DNA of 64,000 nucleotides, from contig NZ_PVTZ01000008.1 in assembly GCF_003003125.1 (NCBI RefSeq), forward strand, positions 1 to 64,000, read 5' to 3'. The first letter of the stretch is position 1. Each line of letters starts with the position of its first letter. The DNA comes from Laceyella sediminis (GTDB lineage Bacteria; Bacillota; Bacilli; Thermoactinomycetales; Thermoactinomycetaceae). Below the pieces are notes generated by a model. It saw nothing but the letters and a program-made list of their open reading frames with translations, did not search any database and had not been told where the DNA came from. Below, piece by piece: positions 20,544-30,579 of this stretch. The translations under genes were made by a program, and so were the position numbers.

Positions 20544-20784
20544 GACGTAACCTCCTTCACCATTCCACTATGTAGAGAATGGGCGCATCTCGAACAATGG
20601 GAAGGAAGATTGAGCGTAGTCCCTCCCGCTTATCCCACCTGTCATTATAGCAAAAAACACAACATTTGCGAGTGGCAGAAACGTTCCTCTGTGTTATTTC
20701 CCCGAACAAAAAGGGATTACCATCCATCAGAAGAAATAATTAGAAAACCCTGGGCGCCGGCTCAGGGATAGTGAGGTGAAAATG

Positions 20785-21252
20785 ATGGGCACATCAACCC
20801 GTTGGCTCGTTCTTTCTATTACGGGCGGACTAATCCTCCTTGGCATCGCCTTGTTTCGCCCTGATTTTCTTTTTTATCAGGATACCCCGGCTTCGGGCAA
20901 ATCAACCGCCCGCGCCAATGCAAAGCAAGTTACGCGTGACATCCACTTGTTCACGGTGGAGCACGAAGCGAACCACGGTGGCAAAGAAGTGGAAGTGTAT
21001 CGGTTTGACCCCGGGTTCATCACAGTGGTCAAAGGGGAAAAAATCCGCTTACACATCCATGGCTTCCATGGGAAAAAGCATCATTTCTCTATCCCCTCCT
21101 TCCAGGTGAACAGCGAGGTGGCCAAAGGGGAAGTGACCACGGTTGAGTTCATCCCCGACAAGGTGGGCACGTTTGAAATCATTTGCCACGACCATTTGAG
21201 TCCGCAACATGAAGGGCCGATGATCGGCTACATCACTGTCGTGCCATCTTAA
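20785..21252 (+). CDS. Membrane-anchored cupredoxin
   Basis: A 155-residue protein with an N-terminal uncleaved-looking signal anchor (about residues 7-26) and an outward-facing cupredoxin fold. Candidate copper ligands are a His in the HGFHGKKHHF loop, and Cys, His and Met in the CHDHLSPQHEGPM loop near residue 134, which is the type 1 or CuA-like loop arrangement. The start at 20785 gives 5 bases between AGGTGA and the ATG; GTG 20776 and ATG 20782 are alternatives. It converges on a tyrosinase gene across a shared terminator, so both are copper proteins in the same locus. Electron transfer or copper handling is inferred. Confidence 0.75.
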   Translation: MGTSTRWLVLSITGGLILLGIALFRPDFLFYQDTPASGKSTARANAKQVTRDIHLFTVEHEANHGGKEVEVYRFDPGFITVVKGEKIRLHIHGFHGKKHHFSIPSFQVNSEVAKGEVTTVEFIPDKVGTFEIICHDHLSPQHEGPMIGYITVVPS

Positions 21253-21309: not shown

Positions 21310-22254
21310 CTATTGATAGCGATACCCCAATTTCTCCATATCCAACACCATCGCTGGCGTCACTTTCCGCCCCATGGACTTCCAAGGCTCCATCGCATCA
21401 TGCAGGTTGTGCCCGCGCGGCCCGCGCTCCCCATCAGTCCCCGCCGGTTGATATCTTTCTTTAGGATGGCTAGCTTGCCATATAGCCCACAAACGGTCAA
21501 TCGTGGCGTGATGCAACCAAAAAATCGGATCATTGGGCGCACTCATCCATGCCATGGACCCTCGTGCAGCCCCGCCTATCCAACGGTGGACGATGTTGTG
21601 AATGTTCCCTTTCCCGTACCACCCCTCCAAGCGATTGCAAAAGCTGGGTCGGACGGCTGGACTATCAGGTCTTAGCAAATTCAGCTTCGCTCGCCACGGG
21701 GGAACGTAATATGGCGTTTCACGCAAGCAACGCTTCACCTCTGCGGCAGTGGGGAGGGAAATCGACCGCCCGCCCGAACCCACTCCCAATTGCCGACGCA
21801 AATAAGGCAACCGCGGTTCACCATGGTCAAACAAGATCAACTTCCACCGCGGATAGGCAAATGGCCCCGTGGTCACACGATAGTTCAACCGCGGGTCTCC
21901 AGTTCCTCCCATAAAATCGTCCGTCCACGGCCCCCGCGGATCATCTGGGCGTCGTTGTGCGGTCCAATCCCAATACGGAATGCTCACAGACGGGTCGATC
22001 TCTTGTAAATCCTTTTCTAACTGGTACAGCAAATAGCGGTGCCATGGGAGAAACGCCGGCCCGCTGTGTGCCCATCCTGGATAAACAGCCGTCATGTTTT
22101 CCATCGACTTTAAATGGATATACACATAATCATCATACCGACCCCATCTGGGGGAAATGCGACCCGGTTTTTGTTTTAAAATCAACAAAGCCCGGACAAA
22201 CCTGCGCTTTTCCTGTTTGCTCAAATCCGCTACATTTTTGCGAATGGTGGTCAT
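21310..22254 (-). CDS. Tyrosinase (type 3 copper monooxygenase)
   Basis: Oxidises monophenols and o-diphenols to quinones, leading to melanin. The 314-residue protein has both copper sites: His47, His63 and His72 (HSGPAFLPWHR) for CuA, and His219, His223 and His248/249 (NIHNIVHRWIGG, DPIFWLHHATIDRLWAIWQ) for CuB. There is no signal peptide and no adjacent caddie (MelC1-like) gene, which fits the Bacillus megaterium type rather than the Streptomyces type. GGATGGG precedes the ATG. Its neighbour is a cupredoxin. Confidence 0.93.
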   Translation of the reverse strand: MTTIRKNVADLSKQEKRRFVRALLILKQKPGRISPRWGRYDDYVYIHLKSMENMTAVYPGWAHSGPAFLPWHRYLLYQLEKDLQEIDPSVSIPYWDWTAQRRPDDPRGPWTDDFMGGTGDPRLNYRVTTGPFAYPRWKLILFDHGEPRLPYLRRQLGVGSGGRSISLPTAAEVKRCLRETPYYVPPWRAKLNLLRPDSPAVRPSFCNRLEGWYGKGNIHNIVHRWIGGAARGSMAWMSAPNDPIFWLHHATIDRLWAIWQASHPKERYQPAGTDGERGPRGHNLHDAMEPWKSMGRKVTPAMVLDMEKLGYRYQ

Positions 22255-22441
22255 CGCTCATCCCATCCTTCAGTTTCGTTATCACATGGTATGAGCAGTT
22301 GGGCAAAACAGTGCATTCCCACTACTGGGACAGTTTGTTTGTTTTACAAACTTGTCTATATAAATGAAAATCCAACTGCGACTCGCTCCCTTTTGCTATA
22401 ATGTCATTGATTGAAACCCATCGCGATGAAGGAGGAAGATC

Positions 22442-22564
22442 ATGTCTTGTCATTTCTGGACGGATCTCCACATAATGACTCAACCGGTACAGGTTCGGTT
22501 CCAAACCCTAACCCACCAAACCGAGCTTCCCAAAAAGAATTTCTCCATGGAGGAACGCGCATGA
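22442..22564 (+). CDS. 40-residue unknown ORF coupled to the next gene
   Basis: The ATG has an excellent site (AAGGAGGAAGATC) and a TATAAT box lies 40 bases upstream (22397-22402). The stop TGA overlaps the ATG of the next gene as ATGA (22561-22564), a usual sign of translational coupling. The product is polar with two His, one Cys and two Trp/Phe residues near its N terminus; I do not recognise it. It may be a leader peptide or a genuine small protein. Confidence 0.5.
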   Translation: MSCHFWTDLHIMTQPVQVRFQTLTHQTELPKKNFSMEERA

Positions 22565-22977
22565 ATATCCGCTTTCAAACACCGCACCAATATGTGTTCA
22601 TCCATCGCCATGTGAAGCACCTCTTACTTTTGTGGAAAAAGGAACACAAACGGGATTTGTACATTGTCGATGACGAAACCGAATCCTCTCTGGTTTTGCG
22701 ATATCCAGGCGACACCTATGCCGAAATGGTTCTACAAGAAGTGGAGCCGATTTTTTTTCAACGCTTGGAAACCGACGAGGAAGCCTTTCTCGCCATCCTT
22801 GCGGCGACCCTTGATTATGGCGGACGCTTGATGGCCATGTATGTCCACCCAGAACGACCACAAACCGATGTTTACTTTTTCGAGGTGCGGGATGAACAGA
22901 TCGAGGAAATCGCTGACGATGAATACCCCCGCATCATCCAAGCTTTCATGGAGGAATATCCCGACTCGTTCGCCTAA
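22561..22977 (+). CDS. 138-residue protein of unknown function
   Basis: Start chosen at 22561 because GGAGGAACGCGC lies just before; the longer frame upstream overlaps the coupled small ORF. The protein is soluble, mixed alpha/beta in character, acidic toward the C terminus (EVRDEQIEEIADDEYP), and has two His-Arg rich patches near its N terminus. No family recognised. A repeat element follows 33 bases after the stop; no other terminator is evident. Confidence 0.7.
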   Translation: MNIRFQTPHQYVFIHRHVKHLLLLWKKEHKRDLYIVDDETESSLVLRYPGDTYAEMVLQEVEPIFFQRLETDEEAFLAILAATLDYGGRLMAMYVHPERPQTDVYFFEVRDEQIEEIADDEYPRIIQAFMEEYPDSFA

Positions 22978-24734: not shown

Positions 24735-24956
24735 CTGCACACCTCCATCTCGCTTAAACGTATGTTCTGATTAAATTATATCACAATATTCTAATAATTT
24801 TACTTTTTACCTTCTGTCTCTAAGTTTATTTCGCGAAACATCACGCTATCAAGATAGCAAACTATTTTTCAAAACTCAATCACCATTACGTAAACAAAGA
24901 ATATATTGTATTAACACCAGAAATTAATAGCACAGCCATCAGGGAGGTGCCAGCAT

Positions 24957-25181
24957 TTGACATCAGATAAGAAAACCTTGGATCAAGTCACCGTCGGGCT
25001 GGAGAAAATGATCAAATTAAAAGTTTACGATCTGCTGATCAACAGCTTGGAAAATGACAAAGTTCCCGCTAAGTTACAACAATTGATGGCTTTGGCGGAA
25101 ATCATAAAACCCGGTACAAAAGATGCGGTGAAGCAAGCATTGCGTAAAGAGAAGTTGAAATCAACAAAGAGAAAGGAGTGA
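24957..25181 (+). CDS. Small helical protein, first gene of the repeat-protein cluster
   Basis: A 74-residue protein that starts with TTG, placed by GGGAGGTG 6 bases upstream. It is Lys- and Leu-rich and predicted mostly helical, with no Cys, no signal and no membrane span. The stop lies 7 bases before the next start, so it heads a plus-strand gene run to 26,454. No family recognised. Confidence 0.65.
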   Translation: MTSDKKTLDQVTVGLEKMIKLKVYDLLINSLENDKVPAKLQQLMALAEIIKPGTKDAVKQALRKEKLKSTKRKE

Positions 25182-25188
25182 AAGAGCG

Positions 25189-25497
25189 ATGGAAGTCTAC
25201 AAGCTGGTCTACATTTCAAGCAACCGCCGCAAAAAACGCAAAAGACCATTGCTTTGCAGGCGATGCCGATGGTTTCTCCTGCATTACGGCGCACTCCCCT
25301 TCGAAACCCGCCGGCGTCGCCGACGACGGCGTAGACTGTCCCGGCCAGCGGCTTCTACCTCCAGCAATGTGAACAACTCAGCCAACATCGGGGCGGTGAG
25401 CGGACTAATCAACATCATCGTTCAGGTGCCTGTCAACACCGGCGATGCAACCACCTTAAACAACAGCAATCAAAACTCAACCACCAATGCCCTCTAA
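25189..25497 (+). CDS. Arg-rich protein with QVPxNxGDA/Asn-rich tail, paralogue 1
   Basis: 102 residues; AAAGGAGTGAAAGAGCG precedes the ATG. The first half is extremely basic, with a run of nine Arg and a CRRC pair; the second half is Asn/Ser-rich and uncharged and contains IIVQVPVNTGDATTLNNS. The tail shares its pattern (VQVPxNxGDAxxxN....NSxxNxL) with the two 70-71 residue proteins downstream. The combination of a basic head and a beta-prone Asn-rich tail suggests a structural, self-assembling coat or surface protein; this is inference. Confidence 0.7.
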   Translation: MEVYKLVYISSNRRKKRKRPLLCRRCRWFLLHYGALPFETRRRRRRRRRLSRPAASTSSNVNNSANIGAVSGLINIIVQVPVNTGDATTLNNSNQNSTTNAL

Positions 25498-25540
25498 CTC
25501 ATCCCCAATCACGTTTCTCAGCCTTGAAAGGAGGTGAAAC

Positions 25541-25927
25541 ATGATGAGCAACCATTCCTACACCCCGGAACAATTGGAGGCGATCCGCTCCTTAATCGAA
25601 GAAGCAAACAACAAACTCCCAGCAGCGCAACAATTGAAAGCACAACAAGTTTCTGAGTTAATCACGTTCATTCTCGGGCTTCCCGTTCAAGCTATCACCG
25701 CGGTGGCAGGTGTCGTCACAGGCGCGACTGGCATCCTGACTGGCGTCGTCGGCAGCTTGCTGGGTATCCTCGAACAGCTGATTGGCTTGATCACCGGCGG
25801 AGGGGCAGCTAATGGTGCAGCCGCTTCCATTCTGCAACAAGTGGCCCCCAACCTGGTGAATATCATTGAAAAGCAAATTCCGACCCCGCCGCAAGGGCAA
25901 AATGATTCAAATCCTGAACAAAAATAA
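25541..25927 (+). CDS. Gly/Ala/Ile-rich hydrophobic protein
   Basis: 128 residues with a strong site (AAAGGAGGTGAAAC) before the tandem ATG codons at 25541 and 25544. The N-terminal 45 residues are helical and polar, residues 46-105 are a long Gly/Ala/Val/Ile/Leu-rich stretch (TGATGILTGVVGSLLGILEQ and ITGGGAANGAAA), and the C-terminal 20 residues are Pro/Gln/Asn-rich. There is no signal peptide. It may insert into a membrane or pack in a hydrophobic coat layer. No family recognised. Confidence 0.65.
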   Translation: MMSNHSYTPEQLEAIRSLIEEANNKLPAAQQLKAQQVSELITFILGLPVQAITAVAGVVTGATGILTGVVGSLLGILEQLIGLITGGGAANGAAASILQQVAPNLVNIIEKQIPTPPQGQNDSNPEQK

Positions 25928-25947
25928 TTAAAAAGGAGTGAAAGACA

Positions 25948-26163
25948 ATGGGTTGCTGCAGAAAAAAGAACTGTCTTATCGTCATTAAAAAACACAGACG
26001 TCGTCGCGCTGTGGGTGGCGCAAGAGCAAGGGTGAACAACGTGGCGCGCACAGGTGCACAAAGCGCCGGATTGATCAACCTGAACGTTCAAGTGCCGATC
26101 AACCTGGGAGATGCTCAAGCATTCAACAGAAGCTCCGGAAACTCCGTCTCCAACTTGCTGTAA
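25948..26163 (+). CDS. Arg-rich protein with QVPxNxGDA tail, paralogue 2
   Basis: 71 residues; AAAAAGGAGTGAAAGACA precedes the ATG. It begins MGCCRKKN, has an RRRR patch, and ends with NVQVPINLGDAQAFNRSSGN. It is nearly identical over its C-terminal 35 residues to the protein at 26,242, including silent positions in the last 48 bases, so duplication or gene conversion is recent. Confidence 0.7.
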   Translation: MGCCRKKNCLIVIKKHRRRRAVGGARARVNNVARTGAQSAGLINLNVQVPINLGDAQAFNRSSGNSVSNLL

Positions 26164-26177
26164 CGCCAACCAGCATA

Positions 26178-26196
26178 GGGGGGAGCTCCTCCCCCC
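26178..26196 (+). other. G/C hairpin between the paralogues
   Basis: GGGGGGAG and CTCCTCCCCCC can form a tight hairpin without a T-run. It may slow RNA decay or partly terminate between the two paralogues. Confidence 0.4.
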
Positions 26197-26241
26197 GTAC
26201 ATATCCAATTCCCCCATTCAACTGAAAGGAGGTGAATCCGA

Positions 26242-26454
26242 ATGGGTTGCCCTAAAAAACACTGTGTGGTGTTCATCCACCAGAAAAGACGCCGTCGCGC
26301 AGTCAGCAGCACCAGAGCACGGGTGAGCAACGTGGCACGTACAGGCGCGCAAAGCGCGGGCCTCGCCAACGTCAACATCCAAGTGCCGATCAACTTGGGT
26401 GATGCGCAAGCATTCAACAGAAGCTCCGGAAACTCCGTCTCCAACTTGCTGTAA
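26242..26454 (+). CDS. Arg-rich protein with QVPxNxGDA tail, paralogue 3
   Basis: 70 residues; AAAGGAGGTGAATCCGA precedes the ATG. It begins MGCPKKHCVVF, has an RRRR patch and ends like paralogue 2. Both keep two Cys near the N terminus, which could crosslink or bind metal. A strong terminator follows the stop directly. Confidence 0.7.
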   Translation: MGCPKKHCVVFIHQKRRRRAVSSTRARVSNVARTGAQSAGLANVNIQVPINLGDAQAFNRSSGNSVSNLL

Positions 26455-26455
26455 C

Positions 26456-26480
26456 AGGGGCAAACGCGCCCCTTTTTTTG
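26456..26480 (+). terminator. Intrinsic terminator after paralogue 3
   Basis: GGGGC and GCCCC pair around AAACGC and are followed by seven T residues. It ends the small-protein operon before the giant repeat gene. Confidence 0.9.
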
Positions 26481-26613
26481 TTTGACGCCAACTAGGCGGG
26501 ATAACTCCCCTTTTCTCACCTTTTCCAAAATACAGGATGACATGCTCCATTCGCAAGGTTAGTGAATATACCTATCAAAGAGTTGCAATGGCCTAGGGAA
26601 AGGGGTTAGAAAA

Positions 26614-29600
26614 TTGAAGAAGAAAAAGATTATTCCGTCATCTAAAAAGAAAACGAAAAAAGATCCGTTAGCGGATGAAAGGGTTCTGGATGAGCTGTGG
26701 CTACTTGACAATGAAACACCTAATTTCAAGAAAAAATGGACCTATACCGCTTCACATAACCAACCCGCGGCATCGGAGGCACCCCCGTCAAAAGAACCGG
26801 CGGTAAGCCACACCGAAACCGAAACGCCCCCTGCCAAAACGGTATCTGAAGTGAGAAAAGCCCGGAACCCCCACGGAATCAACGAAGCGTTCATCTATAC
26901 CGCCGACTTGACCGACGGGGCGGTCACCGCTGAGAAAATCGCCAATCAATCGCTGGACGGGAAAAAAATCAAAAACAGCGCCATCCGGGCAGAACATCTG
27001 GACCAAGAAGCGGTAACAGAGCCCAAACTGGCCGCCGAAGCGGTGACATCGGCCAAAATCGCCAAAAAAACGATTAAAGAATACCACCTGGATGATGACA
27101 TCATCGGCAGTGACAAAATCAAAAGGGAAACGATTCTTGCCAAACACATCAGGGAAAATGAGATTCCCGGAAGCAAATTGTCTGATCGCAGCATCGGTGA
27201 AACCAAATTGAAAGACCATTCCGTCCTTGGCAAACATTTGGCGATCGGCCACATCCAAAACGAGCACTTAGCTGATCAAGCGATTTGCGGCAATAAAATA
27301 AAAAACGGTTCGATCCACACCAACCATTTGGCAAATGGCATCATCAACAGTGCCAAGCTGGCTGATGACTCAGTCTCCGCCGACAAGATCCAAAAAGGGG
27401 CCATCACCAAGGACAAATTGGCCAATGAATCCATTACCAGCGAAAAAATCATCTCCTCCGCCATCCACGGTCGCCATCTGGTCGATCGGGCAATTGAGTC
27501 CCGGCATCTGCAAGACCACATGATCACGGAAGAAAAACTGGCCGCTGCATCTATTCACAGCCATCATTTGCAACATCATATCATCGAAGGCATTCATTTG
27601 TCCCCCCATGTGATCAAAGAAGAACACATTGCTGAGCACGCCGTCACCGGGAACAAAATCGCGCCCGGCAGCATCCGCTCCGCTTCTATTCAAGAGCAAA
27701 CCATCCAGTCCAAGCACTTGGCTCCAAACATCATCGGAGAAGGGCACATTCAAGAGCACTGCATCGGCAAAACGCACATCAAAGATGCGAGCATCAGCGA
27801 ACAACACATTGCCAACAATTCCATCTCTGGCTCCAAGTTGGTCGACCATTCTATTACGACGGCCAAATTGGCGCCCGAATCGATCTCCGCAGAAAAAATC
27901 ATCGATTATTGCATTTCATCAAACAAACTGGCTGACCATGCCATCACAGCTAACAAAATCGCCTCGCGCAACATTAACAGCTCACATCTGGATGATAAAG
28001 TGATTCTCAGCCAACACATCGATCATGATCAAATCAAAACCGAACACCTGATGAACGAATCCGTCACCGCCCGCAAATTGGCAGATGCAGCAGTGGAAAG
28101 CCAGCATATCGCACCACAAGCTGTCACTGGCGACCATCTTGCCCCTGATTCGGTGAGCAACGAACATCTATCCGAATTTTCCGTGACTGCAACCAACATT
28201 GCGCCGCAAGCGATTCGGTCAGAACATCTGTCAGAACAAATCGTGCGCAGCTCCCATATCCTAAACGGTCAGATCGGGGAACAACACATTAAGGCCAACG
28301 CCGTCACTGCGGAGAAAGTCGCACCGCAATCCATCTATGGGGAACATCTGACTCCTCAAGCAATCAACGGTTCCCATCTCCAAGCGGACCAGATCGAAAC
28401 CGGGCACTTGCGCGAGCAAGCTGTTACTGCAAATAAAATCGCACCGCAGTCCATCCATGAAGAACATTTGGCTCCTCGAGCGATCAGTGGCTCCCATCTC
28501 CAAGCGGACCAGATCGATACTGAGCATTTGCGCGAGCAAGCAGTTACTGCGAAAAAAATTGCGCCACAGTCCATCCACGGAGAACACCTGACCTCCCAAG
28601 CGATCAGCGGTACACATCTCCAAGCGAATCAGATCGAGACCGGACATTTGCGCGATGAAGCAGTCACTGCAAGAAAAATCGCGCCGCAATCCATCTACGG
28701 GGAACATGTTGCTCCTCGAGCGATCAGAGGTTCCCATCTCCAAACGAAGCAGATCGAAACCGAGCATTTGCACGATCAGGCCGTCACTGGAGAAAAAATC
28801 GCACCGCAATCCATCTACGAGGAACACTTGACTCCTGAAGCGATTAATGGGTCTCATCTGCAAAAGGAGCAAATCGAAACCGAGCATTTGCACGATCAAG
28901 CCGTCACTGCTGGGAAAATTGCACCGCACGCTGTGCAAAGCGAACACATCAAGCCGGCATCGGTGTTGTCTCCCCATATCGAAGAACAACAAATTCACGC
29001 CGCGCATCTCGCGCAAGCGGCCGTGTTGACGGATCACCTTGGCCAGGGCGCAGTAACCGGCGACAAAATCTCTCCCAACGCCATCAACGCCGATCACTTA
29101 TCAGAACAATGCATCCACTCCTCTCATCTGGCTGATGAGCAAATTCACGGCCATCATCTGCAGAAAGAATGTATCGCATCCGAACATCTGTCCCAGCAAG
29201 CAATTCAATCCGAGCATCTGGGTGAAGCGGTCGTGTTGGCCGACCATATTGCACCATCGCAAATCCAATCCGCCCATCTGGCTGAACAGGCTATCCAAAC
29301 GGAGCATCTGACAGCTGCGAGCGTTAGCGCGGAGCACATCCAAGAACAAAGCATCTGTCACACCCATCTGGTCCCCGGGCTGATCTTCGCCGAACATTTG
29401 GCAGAAAAGGCCGTGACCGAAGAAAAAATTGGGGACCAGGCCGTATCCAAAGACAAAATCAAAGATCAAACCATCACCAAGGACAAAATCAGAGACCAAG
29501 CCATAACCAAAGAAAAAATCAGAGATTTGGCAGTGACAGAAGACAAAATCAGAGACTTCGCGGTGACGGAAGACAAAATTCGCCATCAAGCGGTTGCTAC

Positions 29601-30579
29601 CGATAAAATCAAAGATGCAGCAGTCACGACGGAAAAGTTGCAGGATCAAGCGGTATCCGCTGAAAAAATCAAAGATGGCGCCATCACTACGATAAAGTTG
29701 CAAGATCAAGTCGTCACCACCGACAAAATCGTTGACCTAGCGGTCACGGAAGATAAAATCGGCTCGCAAGCGGTCACAACCGACAAGATCAAGGATTTTA
29801 CCATCACGGAAGACAAAATCAAGGACTTTGCCGTGACGGAAGACAAAATCAAGGACTTCTCCATCACCGAAGACAAAATTGTCGATCGCGCCATCACTGG
29901 GGAAAAACTGGCCGATGGTTCCATCGGATTGGAGAAGTTGAATTTCCAACCGCTCCTAGCTGAGCAACACCCTGTACAAACATCCGGACTTGCCGCCTTC
30001 CAGCTTCCAGCGCATGCTGATCATACGTTCGTCACCGTTTCAGTGGCTGAACCTATGGGCGCCTACATTGTGGTGGCGATGACGAATCATCCCGGCTGTT
30101 TCGCCTCTCTGCACCACTGTGATGAGCAGGAGTTTACCATCCGCATCCAACGGATGAGGGAAGAACCACAAGCGATCAGCGGAACGTTCTTCTGGATCGC
30201 TTCGCAATTGGATCAAGCCATATCACCATTGCAATTCCCAATCAAAAGCGCCGAGCAATTGAAACAAAAGGCCGATGTTAACATCGTGCTTCCCATAGAG
30301 AAAGAGACGGCAACAGATGCGGATATCGAGCAGGAAAGAGAGCACCCACCTGCACCGACACCCTTGGCCGAAGTGGAAAACTTGACCGTAGCAGAAACCT
30401 TATCCGAAGAGGAAAACTTAGTCAAAGAGGAAAGCTTGACCGACACGGATGCATCGGCAGAGCCGCTCGCCTGCTCAGCCGCCCATGCTAATTACGAATC
30501 CAACGACTATGTTGAAGTGAAAAGCTCGGAAGAGTTCGTTCATGGCGATGAAGCACAGGAGCCGGCAGATGTCGATTGA
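26614..30579 (+). CDS. 1,321-residue decapeptide-repeat protein (surface or coat fibre candidate)
   Basis: Starts with TTG after AAAGGGG. Residues 1-100 are Lys-rich then disordered and Pro/Thr-rich. Residues 101-1110 are about 101 decapeptides in perfect 10-residue register, consensus x-x-A/S-I/V-x-x-x-K/H-I/L-x, for example DGAVTAEKIA, DHSITTAKLA and PQSIYGEHLT. Position 8 is Lys or His, giving an unusually His-rich middle third; the last 20 or so repeats are all Lys. Residues about 1111-1200 form a non-repeat domain ending FFWIA, which recalls the WIAG-tail domain of Firmicutes repeat proteins (from memory). The last 120 residues are strongly acidic. There is no signal peptide or membrane span, which argues for a coat protein made in the mother cell rather than ordinary secretion. 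Confidence 0.85.
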   Translation: MKKKKIIPSSKKKTKKDPLADERVLDELWLLDNETPNFKKKWTYTASHNQPAASEAPPSKEPAVSHTETETPPAKTVSEVRKARNPHGINEAFIYTADLTDGAVTAEKIANQSLDGKKIKNSAIRAEHLDQEAVTEPKLAAEAVTSAKIAKKTIKEYHLDDDIIGSDKIKRETILAKHIRENEIPGSKLSDRSIGETKLKDHSVLGKHLAIGHIQNEHLADQAICGNKIKNGSIHTNHLANGIINSAKLADDSVSADKIQKGAITKDKLANESITSEKIISSAIHGRHLVDRAIESRHLQDHMITEEKLAAASIHSHHLQHHIIEGIHLSPHVIKEEHIAEHAVTGNKIAPGSIRSASIQEQTIQSKHLAPNIIGEGHIQEHCIGKTHIKDASISEQHIANNSISGSKLVDHSITTAKLAPESISAEKIIDYCISSNKLADHAITANKIASRNINSSHLDDKVILSQHIDHDQIKTEHLMNESVTARKLADAAVESQHIAPQAVTGDHLAPDSVSNEHLSEFSVTATNIAPQAIRSEHLSEQIVRSSHILNGQIGEQHIKANAVTAEKVAPQSIYGEHLTPQAINGSHLQADQIETGHLREQAVTANKIAPQSIHEEHLAPRAISGSHLQADQIDTEHLREQAVTAKKIAPQSIHGEHLTSQAISGTHLQANQIETGHLRDEAVTARKIAPQSIYGEHVAPRAIRGSHLQTKQIETEHLHDQAVTGEKIAPQSIYEEHLTPEAINGSHLQKEQIETEHLHDQAVTAGKIAPHAVQSEHIKPASVLSPHIEEQQIHAAHLAQAAVLTDHLGQGAVTGDKISPNAINADHLSEQCIHSSHLADEQIHGHHLQKECIASEHLSQQAIQSEHLGEAVVLADHIAPSQIQSAHLAEQAIQTEHLTAASVSAEHIQEQSICHTHLVPGLIFAEHLAEKAVTEEKIGDQAVSKDKIKDQTITKDKIRDQAITKEKIRDLAVTEDKIRDFAVTEDKIRHQAVATDKIKDAAVTTEKLQDQAVSAEKIKDGAITTIKLQDQVVTTDKIVDLAVTEDKIGSQAVTTDKIKDFTITEDKIKDFAVTEDKIKDFSITEDKIVDRAITGEKLADGSIGLEKLNFQPLLAEQHPVQTSGLAAFQLPAHADHTFVTVSVAEPMGAYIVVAMTNHPGCFASLHHCDEQEFTIRIQRMREEPQAISGTFFWIASQLDQAISPLQFPIKSAEQLKQKADVNIVLPIEKETATDADIEQEREHPPAPTPLAEVENLTVAETLSEEENLVKEESLTDTDASAEPLACSAAHANYESNDYVEVKSSEEFVHGDEAQEPADVD
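26914..29943 (+). repeat. 30-base coding tandem repeat, about 101 units
   Basis: The decapeptide array of the giant protein. The reading frame and the 10-codon register are kept throughout with no insertion or deletion. Within it, 28,321-28,920 is a higher-order repeat of five 120-base units (four decapeptides each, PQSI..EHL / ..AI.GSHL / ..QIETEHL / .QAVTA.KI), which points to recent unequal expansion. Confidence 0.9.

What the first reader, a model, noticed from the sequence alone, without database searches (positions are those of the whole stretch)
24957..30579. Candidate undescribed surface or coat assembly: giant decapeptide-repeat protein plus related Arg-rich/QVPxNxGDA proteins
Six consecutive plus-strand genes, all with strong ribosome binding sites, encode proteins that look structural rather than enzymatic: a 1,321-residue protein with about 101 decapeptides, three paralogues with basic heads and an Asn-rich VQVPxNxGDA tail, a hydrophobic Gly/Ala-rich protein and a small helical protein. 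None has a signal peptide, so a mother-cell-made spore coat or exosporium layer is more likely than secretion. The VQVPxN...GNSV pattern loosely recalls chaplin/rodlin-type aerial surface proteins of Streptomyces, and thermoactinomycetes also form aerial hyphae. The parts and synteny are seen; the role is inferred.
Basis: partly seen in the sequence, partly recalled or inferred. Interest (0 to 1): 0.85.

Follow-up and report, generated by a model that had tools for sequence, protein, structure and literature searches.

The report
Spore-envelope fibre protein and coat-like cassette
A giant repeat protein and a set of tiny arginine-rich proteins sit side by side in a heat-loving bacterium; comparison with relatives suggests they are two separate kinds of spore-envelope building block, one of them built from the same type of repeat as phage tail fibres.

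Summary
Five small genes (A 24957, B 25189, C 25541, D1 25948, D2 26242), a terminator-like hairpin at 26456, then a 1,321-aa gene with a gap-free run of 103 decapeptides (longest run in 1,000 shuffles: 4). The single 'assembly' does not hold: in the loci compared, the two modules meet only in the window's genus, Laceyella.

The giant is a WIAG-tail protein (NF012201), in 15 of 23 family, 31 of 42 order and 79 of 299 class genomes, one copy each except one genome with two; all 79 have Spo0A. In 12 of 15 family loci it lies between four YheC/D-type genes and SpoVR. Both Laceyella genomes keep that locus without the giant. Its repeats match phage tail-fibre families, but flanking genes are not virion genes.

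The small cassette has no match over cut-off in Pfam or NCBIfam. In the class sample it occurs only in the order (13 of 27 genomes; 0 of 272 others). In one relative it follows CotS spore-coat kinase.

Best reading: mother-cell-made spore-envelope parts, the giant a stalked fibre, the cassette a small-protein layer. Chaplin membership fails. Promoter and fold evidence is inconclusive. Localisation is untested.

The parts
24957..25181 (+). Gene A: 74-aa small protein (helical by eye), first gene of the small cassette
   Evidence: ORF and Shine-Dalgarno; homologues by tblastn in 4 of 7 strong relatives' cassettes outside the genus, similar-looking small proteins at the same place in others; weak family matches below cut-off only, none in PHROGs at E<=0.01
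25189..25497 (+). Gene B: 102-aa Arg-rich protein with VQVPVNTGDAT tail
25541..25927 (+). Gene C: 128-aa Gly/Ala-rich hydrophobic protein
   Evidence: match at E<=0.1 in 9 of 23 family genomes
25948..26163 (+). Gene D1: 71-aa Arg-rich protein with VQVPINLGDAQAFNRSSGNSVSNLL tail
26242..26454 (+). Gene D2: 70-aa paralogue of D1 (79% identical)
26456..26480 (+). Terminator-like hairpin and T run after D2, before the giant gene
   Evidence: pattern scan (14 sites found, 9.1 expected); sequence
24881..24910 (+). Promoter-like element upstream of gene A: CACC-N17-TATATTGTA (sigma-K-like by eye)
   Evidence: pattern chosen after viewing; 6 of 9 cassettes against 0.18 expected; not confirmed by the independent matrix
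26563..26569 (+). TGAATAT, conserved -10-like element upstream of the giant
   Evidence: TG[AC]ATAT in 14 of 14 family and 10 of 14 other WIAG-gene upstreams (post hoc pattern); matrix test negative for this gene
26614..30579 (+). Giant gene: 1,321-aa WIAG-tail decapeptide-repeat protein
26614..26877 (+). Low-complexity N-terminal head with a basic start (residues 1-88)
   Evidence: same architecture in the 14 family giants read from their start
26878..29967 (+). Gap-free array of 103 decapeptides (residues 89-1118), consensus [IV][TS]xx[HK][LI]x[DP]x[AS]
   Evidence: 120-nt (four-unit) higher-order repeat at 28303-28928
29977..30201 (+). WIAG-tail domain (residues 1122-1196)
   Evidence: NF012201, 49.1 bits, cut-off 33
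30202..30576 (+). Glu-rich, acidic C-terminal tail
   Evidence: sequence

Best explanation
Two mother-cell-made spore-envelope modules that have become neighbours in Laceyella. Module 1, the giant, is a fibre protein: a basic-starting N-terminal head, a stalk of 103 tail-fibre-type decapeptides, and a WIAG-tail cap followed by an acidic tail. It is probably an oligomeric (by analogy trimeric) stalk, docked on the coat by its head, with the cap outward. Module 2, the A-B-C-D cassette, encodes small proteins whose Arg-rich heads hold them to an acidic layer of the spore and whose Asn/QVPxNxGD tails co-assemble into a shell, with C as a hydrophobic partner. SHOWN: sequences, domain, synteny, distribution, and the giant's absence from the yhe-spoVR locus in Laceyella. 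INFERRED: that it moved, spore location, mother-cell expression, oligomerisation, head docking, tail assembly.
For: Giant: lies between four YheC/D-type genes and SpoVR in 12 of 15 family loci; in one more, cut by a contig end, SpoVR is still present (representatives named). YheC/D-like genes lie within the stretches fetched in 4 of 6 further order loci and 4 of 14 other class loci; SpoVR in 3 of 6 and 0 of 14. In B. subtilis yheC and yheD are sigma-E/SpoIIID-controlled (PMC517825, passages) and YheD is said to form a shell around the spore (PMC7911427, passages). All 79 WIAG genomes of 299 have Spo0A (247 of 299 do; lists compared), hypergeometric p = 2e-8, not corrected for kinship. Class loci L135 and L143 carry glycosyltransferase or sugar-nucleotide genes near it. 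Cassette: present in 20 of 42 order genomes at E<=0.1, 15 of 27 genera; in G020 it starts about 0.8 kb after a CotS-family gene scoring over its cut-off, 183.5 against 172.7 bits. No N-terminal export-like segment, as expected of proteins made in the mother cell. Conserved promoter-like boxes upstream of both modules (post hoc).
Against: No expression, localisation or proteomic data were found. The independent promoter test failed for the cassettes (0 of 9 at p<=0.05 with a dpaA-derived matrix, 1 of 9 with a spoIVA-derived one) and for the window's giant (p = 0.72 and 0.74). Strict sigma-K consensus (letters recalled): 0 of 37 upstreams. Fold models are poor: mean pLDDT 49.7 and 54.9. Giant and cassette do not co-occur beyond chance. 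Seven of 22 near-complete family genomes, all with SpoIVA, lack the giant, so it is dispensable for sporulation. Ten of 14 class loci outside the order show no YheC/D-like gene in the stretch fetched, and none shows SpoVR. hemZ, the neighbour of the cassette in 6 of 19 loci, is a haem gene and not evidence for the spore.
Confidence: 0.68

Rival explanations
1. The giant is a phage tail fibre or prophage remnant that drifted next to the small genes.
For: Its decapeptides match PHROG tail-fibre families (phrog_892, E = 6e-146) and a 197-aa piece matches 120 of 50,697 phage records. The closest solved sequence of the repeat profile is the cyanophage P-SCSP1u fibre gp28 (E = 2e-6; the whole protein as single query gave DotG/IcmE first, E = 2e-5). 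One algal virus protein is annotated as WIAG-tail in print (PMC12085832, passage).
Against: Conserved chromosomal synteny in 12 of 15 family loci, at most one WIAG gene per family genome. Of 10 flanking window ORFs scanned against PHROGs only the acyl-CoA ligase matched, to families of unknown function. Phage H1, whose match spans the WIAG segment, shows by eye only the repeats; H2, H12 and H15, which also reach into it, were not read. Two scans of viral contigs for the WIAG domain gave no confirmed relative (narrow patterns).
Confidence: 0.06
2. Surface proteins of aerial hyphae, functionally like chaplins or rodlins.
For: The family is described as having aerial hyphae (PMC11810901, passage); VQVPxN...GNSV loosely resembles chaplin segments (recalled, no call).
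Confidence: 0.08
3. Only the giant is a spore protein; the cassette is an unrelated intracellular polyelectrolyte or inclusion system that merely neighbours it in Laceyella.
For: No co-occurrence (Fisher p = 0.66); the two lie apart in all 8 other family genomes that have both; hemZ near the cassette in 6 of 19 loci.
Against: CotS and a Ser/His/Cys repeat protein precede the cassette in G020. In G040 an amidase whose best match is CwlD (below cut-off, 87 against 222 bits) and, by eye, sugar-metabolism genes lie near a divergent cassette. Repeated small Arg-rich proteins look structural.
Confidence: 0.15

Closest known systems
WIAG-tail domain proteins (NCBIfam NF012201)
   Same: C-terminal WIAG domain over cut-off, long decapeptide stalk; the window's giant is a member.
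   Different: The library gives a name but no function; here synteny and distribution suggest one. In Laceyella it is not at the yhe-spoVR locus.
Phage tail fibres with decapeptide repeats (PHROG phrog_892; cyanophage P-SCSP1u gp28)
   Same: Same type of decapeptide stalk (E = 6e-146).
   Different: WIAG cap not confirmed in viral contigs, chromosomal sporulation-type context; heads were not compared.
YheC/YheD spore-associated proteins
   Same: Gene neighbours of the giant across the family, with published spore location of YheD in B. subtilis.
   Different: ATP-grasp enzymes (PF14398); not shown to be related to either module.
Chaplins (Streptomyces)
   Same: Small proteins with a VPVN-like segment (recalled).
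   Different: No Pfam match, no secretion signal seen, Arg-rich head; different gene context.
BclA-type exosporium filament proteins
   Same: Would work alike: repeat stalk plus C-terminal beta cap on the spore (recalled analogy).
   Different: No collagen-like GXY repeat (by eye); different stalk and cap.

Membership tests
WIAG-tail domain (NF012201) | Score over the curated cut-off (33 bits) | tested here: met
   49.1 bits, residues 1122-1196
Phage tail-fibre protein | Repeats matching tail-fibre profiles | tested here: met
   phrog_892 E = 6e-146
Phage tail-fibre protein | Located among virion genes | tested here: not met
   10 flanking window ORFs scanned against PHROGs: none matches a virion family; family loci show YheC/D and SpoVR
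Chaplin (Pfam chaplin model) | Profile match | tested here: not met
   21 tails scanned at E<=5; six families listed in all, none a chaplin
Chaplin (Pfam chaplin model) | Sec signal peptide | tested here: not met
   Hydropathy only: best 15-residue mean in the first 40 aa at most 0.37 for B, D1 and D2
Pentapeptide repeat proteins | Match to a pentapeptide-repeat Pfam model | tested here: not met
   None among Pfam matches at E<=1; NCBIfam HetL matched far below its cut-off, 41 against 260 bits
Type IVB secretion protein DotG/IcmE | Score over cut-off | tested here: not met
   41 against 750 bits; repeats only
Spore coat or exosporium protein | Presence in purified spore layers | not testable with these tools
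   Needs mass spectrometry or microscopy
Spore coat or exosporium protein | Mother-cell sigma factor control | tested here: inconclusive
   Conserved boxes (post hoc) but matrix test negative for the cassettes and the window's giant
Spore coat or exosporium protein | Confined to genomes with the sporulation regulator Spo0A | tested here: met
   Class sample only: 79 of 79 WIAG genomes have Spo0A. Cassette: 13 genomes of 299, all in the order and all among the Spo0A genomes

The most novel reading that the evidence does not exclude
Many spore-forming relatives of Bacillus carry on their spores a long fibre made of the stalk unit that phages use in tail fibres, capped by the WIAG domain; thermoactinomycetes add an unrelated, order-specific self-assembling layer of Arg-rich QVPxNxGD small proteins. 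In Laceyella the two are encoded together after the fibre gene left the yhe-spoVR locus.
Probability: 0.4. Interest if true: 0.8.

Novelty: new variant of a known kind. Interest (0 to 1): 0.52.

Why it matters
If right, it gives a function to a named domain without a stated one that is found in 58 of 272 sampled class genomes even outside this order, links phage-fibre-type stalks with spore surfaces, and adds a new family of coat-like small proteins of the thermoactinomycetes. Spore surfaces decide adhesion, dispersal and allergen exposure (general knowledge), and the listings of the paper searches showed little about proteins of thermoactinomycete spores. The claims are directly testable in culturable species such as Laceyella sacchari or Thermoactinomyces vulgaris.

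Tried and rejected
Chaplin/rodlin membership: no profile match. Pentapeptide-repeat and DotG/IcmE assignments: far below cut-off, repeat cross-matches. Prophage: rejected on context. A search for WIAG-tail in print found one paper, an algal virus genome table. Strict sigma-K consensus (recalled letters): 0 of 37. Matrix test from dpaA and spoIVA upstreams of the same family: dpaA matrix 0 of 9 cassettes, 3 of 28 WIAG genes, 5 of 9 yhe1; spoIVA matrix 1 of 9, 6 of 28, 2 of 9. Each matrix comes from one gene and is overfitted. Structure predictions gave mean pLDDT 49.7 (repeats plus WIAG) and 54.9 (D1); short helices in most decapeptides and six strands in the WIAG domain are drawn but not trusted. 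Foldseek against PDB gave nothing at E<=0.001. Profiles of the WIAG domain and of the QVP proteins found no solved relative (best E 0.96; none). A Laceyella transcriptome paper has no spore, sporulation, WIAG or coat mention in its main text. Brevibacillus spore-surface proteins (PMC5335551, passages): nothing like the giant in the passages seen.

Rows dropped: the giant of L029 (cut by a contig end) from repeat counts and promoter sets; L140 and L145 from the WIAG set (giant not recognised or cut); L151-L153 and L154 not in the promoter set, L151-L153 not in the WIAG set; six of 30 WIAG domains (L017, L018, L019, L022, L029, L139) left out of alignment A3; the three L019 rows left out of A2 (21 of 24 used). 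L083 (G008, a weak hit with a stop) was fetched but not used. The promoter set of nine cassettes includes one (L075) whose gene A was not located. Neighbour reading covered 17 of 20 loci; one search covered all 20, against proteins of five reference loci only. In one search only the best 20 candidates per genome were scored. Printed output was cut in the middle; counts come from the stored results. The reference set includes L016 and L028 themselves.
Full report
What is there. The window holds five short + strand genes, here called A (24957-25181), B (25189-25497), C (25541-25927), D1 (25948-26163) and D2 (26242-26454), followed by a terminator-like hairpin at 26456-26473 and then a gene of 1,321 codons at 26614-30579. 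B, D1 and D2 share an Arg-rich head and the Q.P.N.GDA tail. The giant's residues 89-1118 are 103 decapeptides without an insertion, [IV][TS]xx[HK][LI]x[DP]x[AS]. The longest such run in 1,000 shuffles of the same protein was 4. A 120-nt unit of four decapeptides is repeated 5.2 times at 28303-28928, a sign of expansion in whole units. The hairpin makes one transcript for all six genes doubtful, but the scan found 14 such sites where shuffles give 9.1, so it is weak evidence.

Where it is. D1 is identical to a protein of Laceyella sacchari DSM 43356, whose contig length, 646,126, equals that of contig C3 of G006, a genome of the window's own genus. The window is therefore taken to be from Laceyella.

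The giant. It carries the WIAG-tail domain over its cut-off (49.1 against 33 bits). The domain has one match per positive genome in 15 of 23 family genomes, 31 of 42 order genomes (30 over the cut-off) and 79 of 299 class genomes (78 over the cut-off; one genome has two). It was found in none of 14 control genomes. All 79 WIAG genomes also match Spo0A_C, which 247 of the same 299 do; the hypergeometric value is 2e-8 without correction for kinship. Spo0A is only a proxy for spore formation, and genomes outside the class were not searched apart from the controls. Architecture is constant in the 14 family giants read from their start: basic start, a cap reading like IYTxDLTDxxVTxEKIA, 70 to 197 gap-free decapeptides, an end reading like SIGLEKL in most, WIAG domain, variable tail.

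Its usual place. In 12 of 15 family loci the giant lies between four YheC/D-type genes and SpoVR on the opposite strand; a thirteenth locus is cut by a contig end but still shows SpoVR. Representatives match ATPgrasp_YheCD (PF14398) and SpoVR (PF04293). The remaining two are the two Laceyella genomes. There the YheC/D, acetyltransferase-like, hydrolase and SpoVR genes are all present in order but without the giant, and the giant sits beside the small cassette and hemZ (named). The simplest reading is that the gene moved within this genus. Farther away, YheC/D-like genes are within the fetched stretch in 4 of 6 other order loci and 4 of 14 other class loci, SpoVR in 3 of 6 and 0 of 14 (reference proteins from five loci only, so distant ones may be missed). 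In class locus L143 a group-1 glycosyltransferase and a glucose-1-phosphate thymidylyltransferase lie on either side of it, and in L135 a family-2 glycosyltransferase follows it.

Why this suggests the spore. In B. [quoted passage not shown] Synteny with them and with SpoVR, and confinement to Spo0A genomes in the class sample, point to a mother-cell product. No direct evidence of location exists here. Seven of 22 near-complete family genomes, all with SpoIVA, lack the giant, so it cannot be essential for spore formation.

Phage resemblance. The decapeptides match phage tail-fibre families (phrog_892, E = 6e-146), 120 of 50,697 phage records and, among solved structures by profile, best the cyanophage P-SCSP1u fibre gp28 (E = 2e-6); the single sequence gave DotG/IcmE first. 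The passages seen of the P-SCSP1u paper say that the N-termini of the fibre were resolved (PMC10575957). The WIAG domain was not confirmed in viral contigs with two narrow pattern scans, and a phage whose match seemed to span it shows by eye only the repeats. One algal virus protein is annotated as WIAG-tail in print (PMC12085832, passage). Ten ORFs flanking the six genes were scanned against PHROGs; only the acyl-CoA ligase matched, to families of unknown function. The stalk type is therefore shared with phages; the gene is not a prophage gene by context. Whether the stalk was borrowed or arose alike is not settled.

The cassette. D1 as a single query finds 15 of 23 family genomes at E<=1, some of them weak. 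A profile of 21 tails finds 20 of 42 order genomes at E<=0.1 in 15 of 27 genera, and 13 of 299 class genomes at E<=0.001, all of them among the 27 order genomes sampled (only the best 20 candidates per genome were scored). A pattern scan of the named-genome collection (one genome for each of 84,980 species) gave seven confirmed loci of 21 pattern matches, six in named species that are known thermoactinomycetes and one in a metagenome-assembled Thermoactinomycetaceae genome (one 9-residue pattern). D1 had no match at E<=1 in the phage and plasmid collections. A, B, C and D-type genes recur in the same order in most of the strong loci, with five tails per genome in two f2 genomes. hemZ lies in 6 of 19 cassette loci examined, including L. 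sacchari. In G020 the cassette follows a CotS-family gene (TIGR02906, 183.5 bits, cut-off 172.7) and a protein of SSSSSDCHKHKKHH repeats. In G040 a 190-aa neighbour holds four copies of an IVIQxP(I/V)-like motif, by eye. No cassette protein of the window matches Pfam or NCBIfam over cut-off, or PHROGs at E<=0.01.

Two modules, not one. Across 23 family genomes 10 have both, 5 the giant only, 4 the cassette only and 4 neither (from; Fisher p = 0.66). They are adjacent only in the two Laceyella genomes; in the other eight with both they lie on different contigs, or about 78 kb apart in G016.

Promoters. Looking at upstreams first, I saw CACC-N15..18-HATANNNTA before 6 of 9 cassettes (0.18 expected in shuffles) and TG[AC]ATAT before 14 of 14 family and 10 of 14 other WIAG genes (0.75 and 0.59 expected); both patterns were chosen after viewing. 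A strict sigma-K pattern, with letters from memory, matched 0 of 37. An independent test with matrices from dpaA and spoIVA upstreams of the same family was negative for the cassettes (0 and 1 of 9) and for the window's giant; the dpaA matrix was positive for 5 of 9 yhe1 upstreams and three class WIAG genes, the spoIVA matrix for 6 of 28 WIAG genes and 2 of 9 yhe1. This evidence is inconclusive.

Structure. AlphaFold2 on about 13 decapeptides plus the WIAG domain (8-row alignment) gave mean pLDDT 49.7, and on D1 (20 rows) 54.9. The first draws short helices in most decapeptides and six strands in the WIAG domain, which recalls the helix-turn-helix stalk reported for phi29 head fibres (PMC6542822, passages), but confidence is too low to use. 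Foldseek gave no match at E<=0.001.

Mechanism, marked. Shown: sequence, domain, distribution, synteny, absence from the usual locus in Laceyella. Inferred: relocation; expression in the mother cell; docking of the giant by its head; an oligomeric stalk; an outward WIAG cap; association of the Arg-rich heads of B and D with acidic spore material; assembly of their tails with C. The overall spore-envelope reading I put at about two in three; the detailed fibre-plus-layer picture at about 0.4.

Literature. Searches for WIAG-tail, Thermoactinomyces with spore coat or exosporium, Laceyella/Thermoactinomyces with spore proteome or surface, decapeptide repeats with spore or tail fiber and thermoactinomycete endospore terms listed no paper that, from title and abstract start, describes these proteins. 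Only listings (12, 15, 8 and 10 rows of longer lists in the last four) and the passages named were seen; subscription papers are mostly absent from the library.

Noticed in passing
window 21310-22254 (-) and 20776-21252 (+): A tyrosinase (PF00264 over cut-off; best NCBIfam relative MelC2, below cut-off) and a cupredoxin-like protein lie about 3 kb from the cassette. Among 19 cassette loci the tyrosinase is found only in L. sacchari, the cupredoxin in three (limited to the stretches fetched). A role in spore pigment or cross-linking is possible but untested.
   Followed up: partly
G000:C15 and G006:C1 (L237, L238): Laceyella keeps the yhe-hydrolase-spoVR locus without the WIAG giant, an apparent empty donor site of a gene relocation.
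   Followed up: yes
L236, 4734-5306 on the reversed strand: A 190-aa protein next to a divergent cassette carries four IVIQxP(I/V)-like motifs by eye, suggesting the QVP segment can be a repeating unit; no NCBIfam or Pfam match.
   Followed up: partly
L078, 3156-3818 on the reversed strand: A 220-aa protein made almost wholly of SSSSSDCHKHKK-type repeats beside CotS and the cassette; no NCBIfam match.
   Followed up: no
window 26614-30579: Decapeptide repeats cross-match DotG/IcmE, HetL and tail-fibre models, a trap for automatic annotation.
   Followed up: partly
window 22411-22977 (+): A conserved protein (MNIRFQTPHQYVFIHxxVKHLLLLWKKE) accompanies the cassette in 7 of 19 loci and has no NCBIfam match at E<=0.01.
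   Followed up: no
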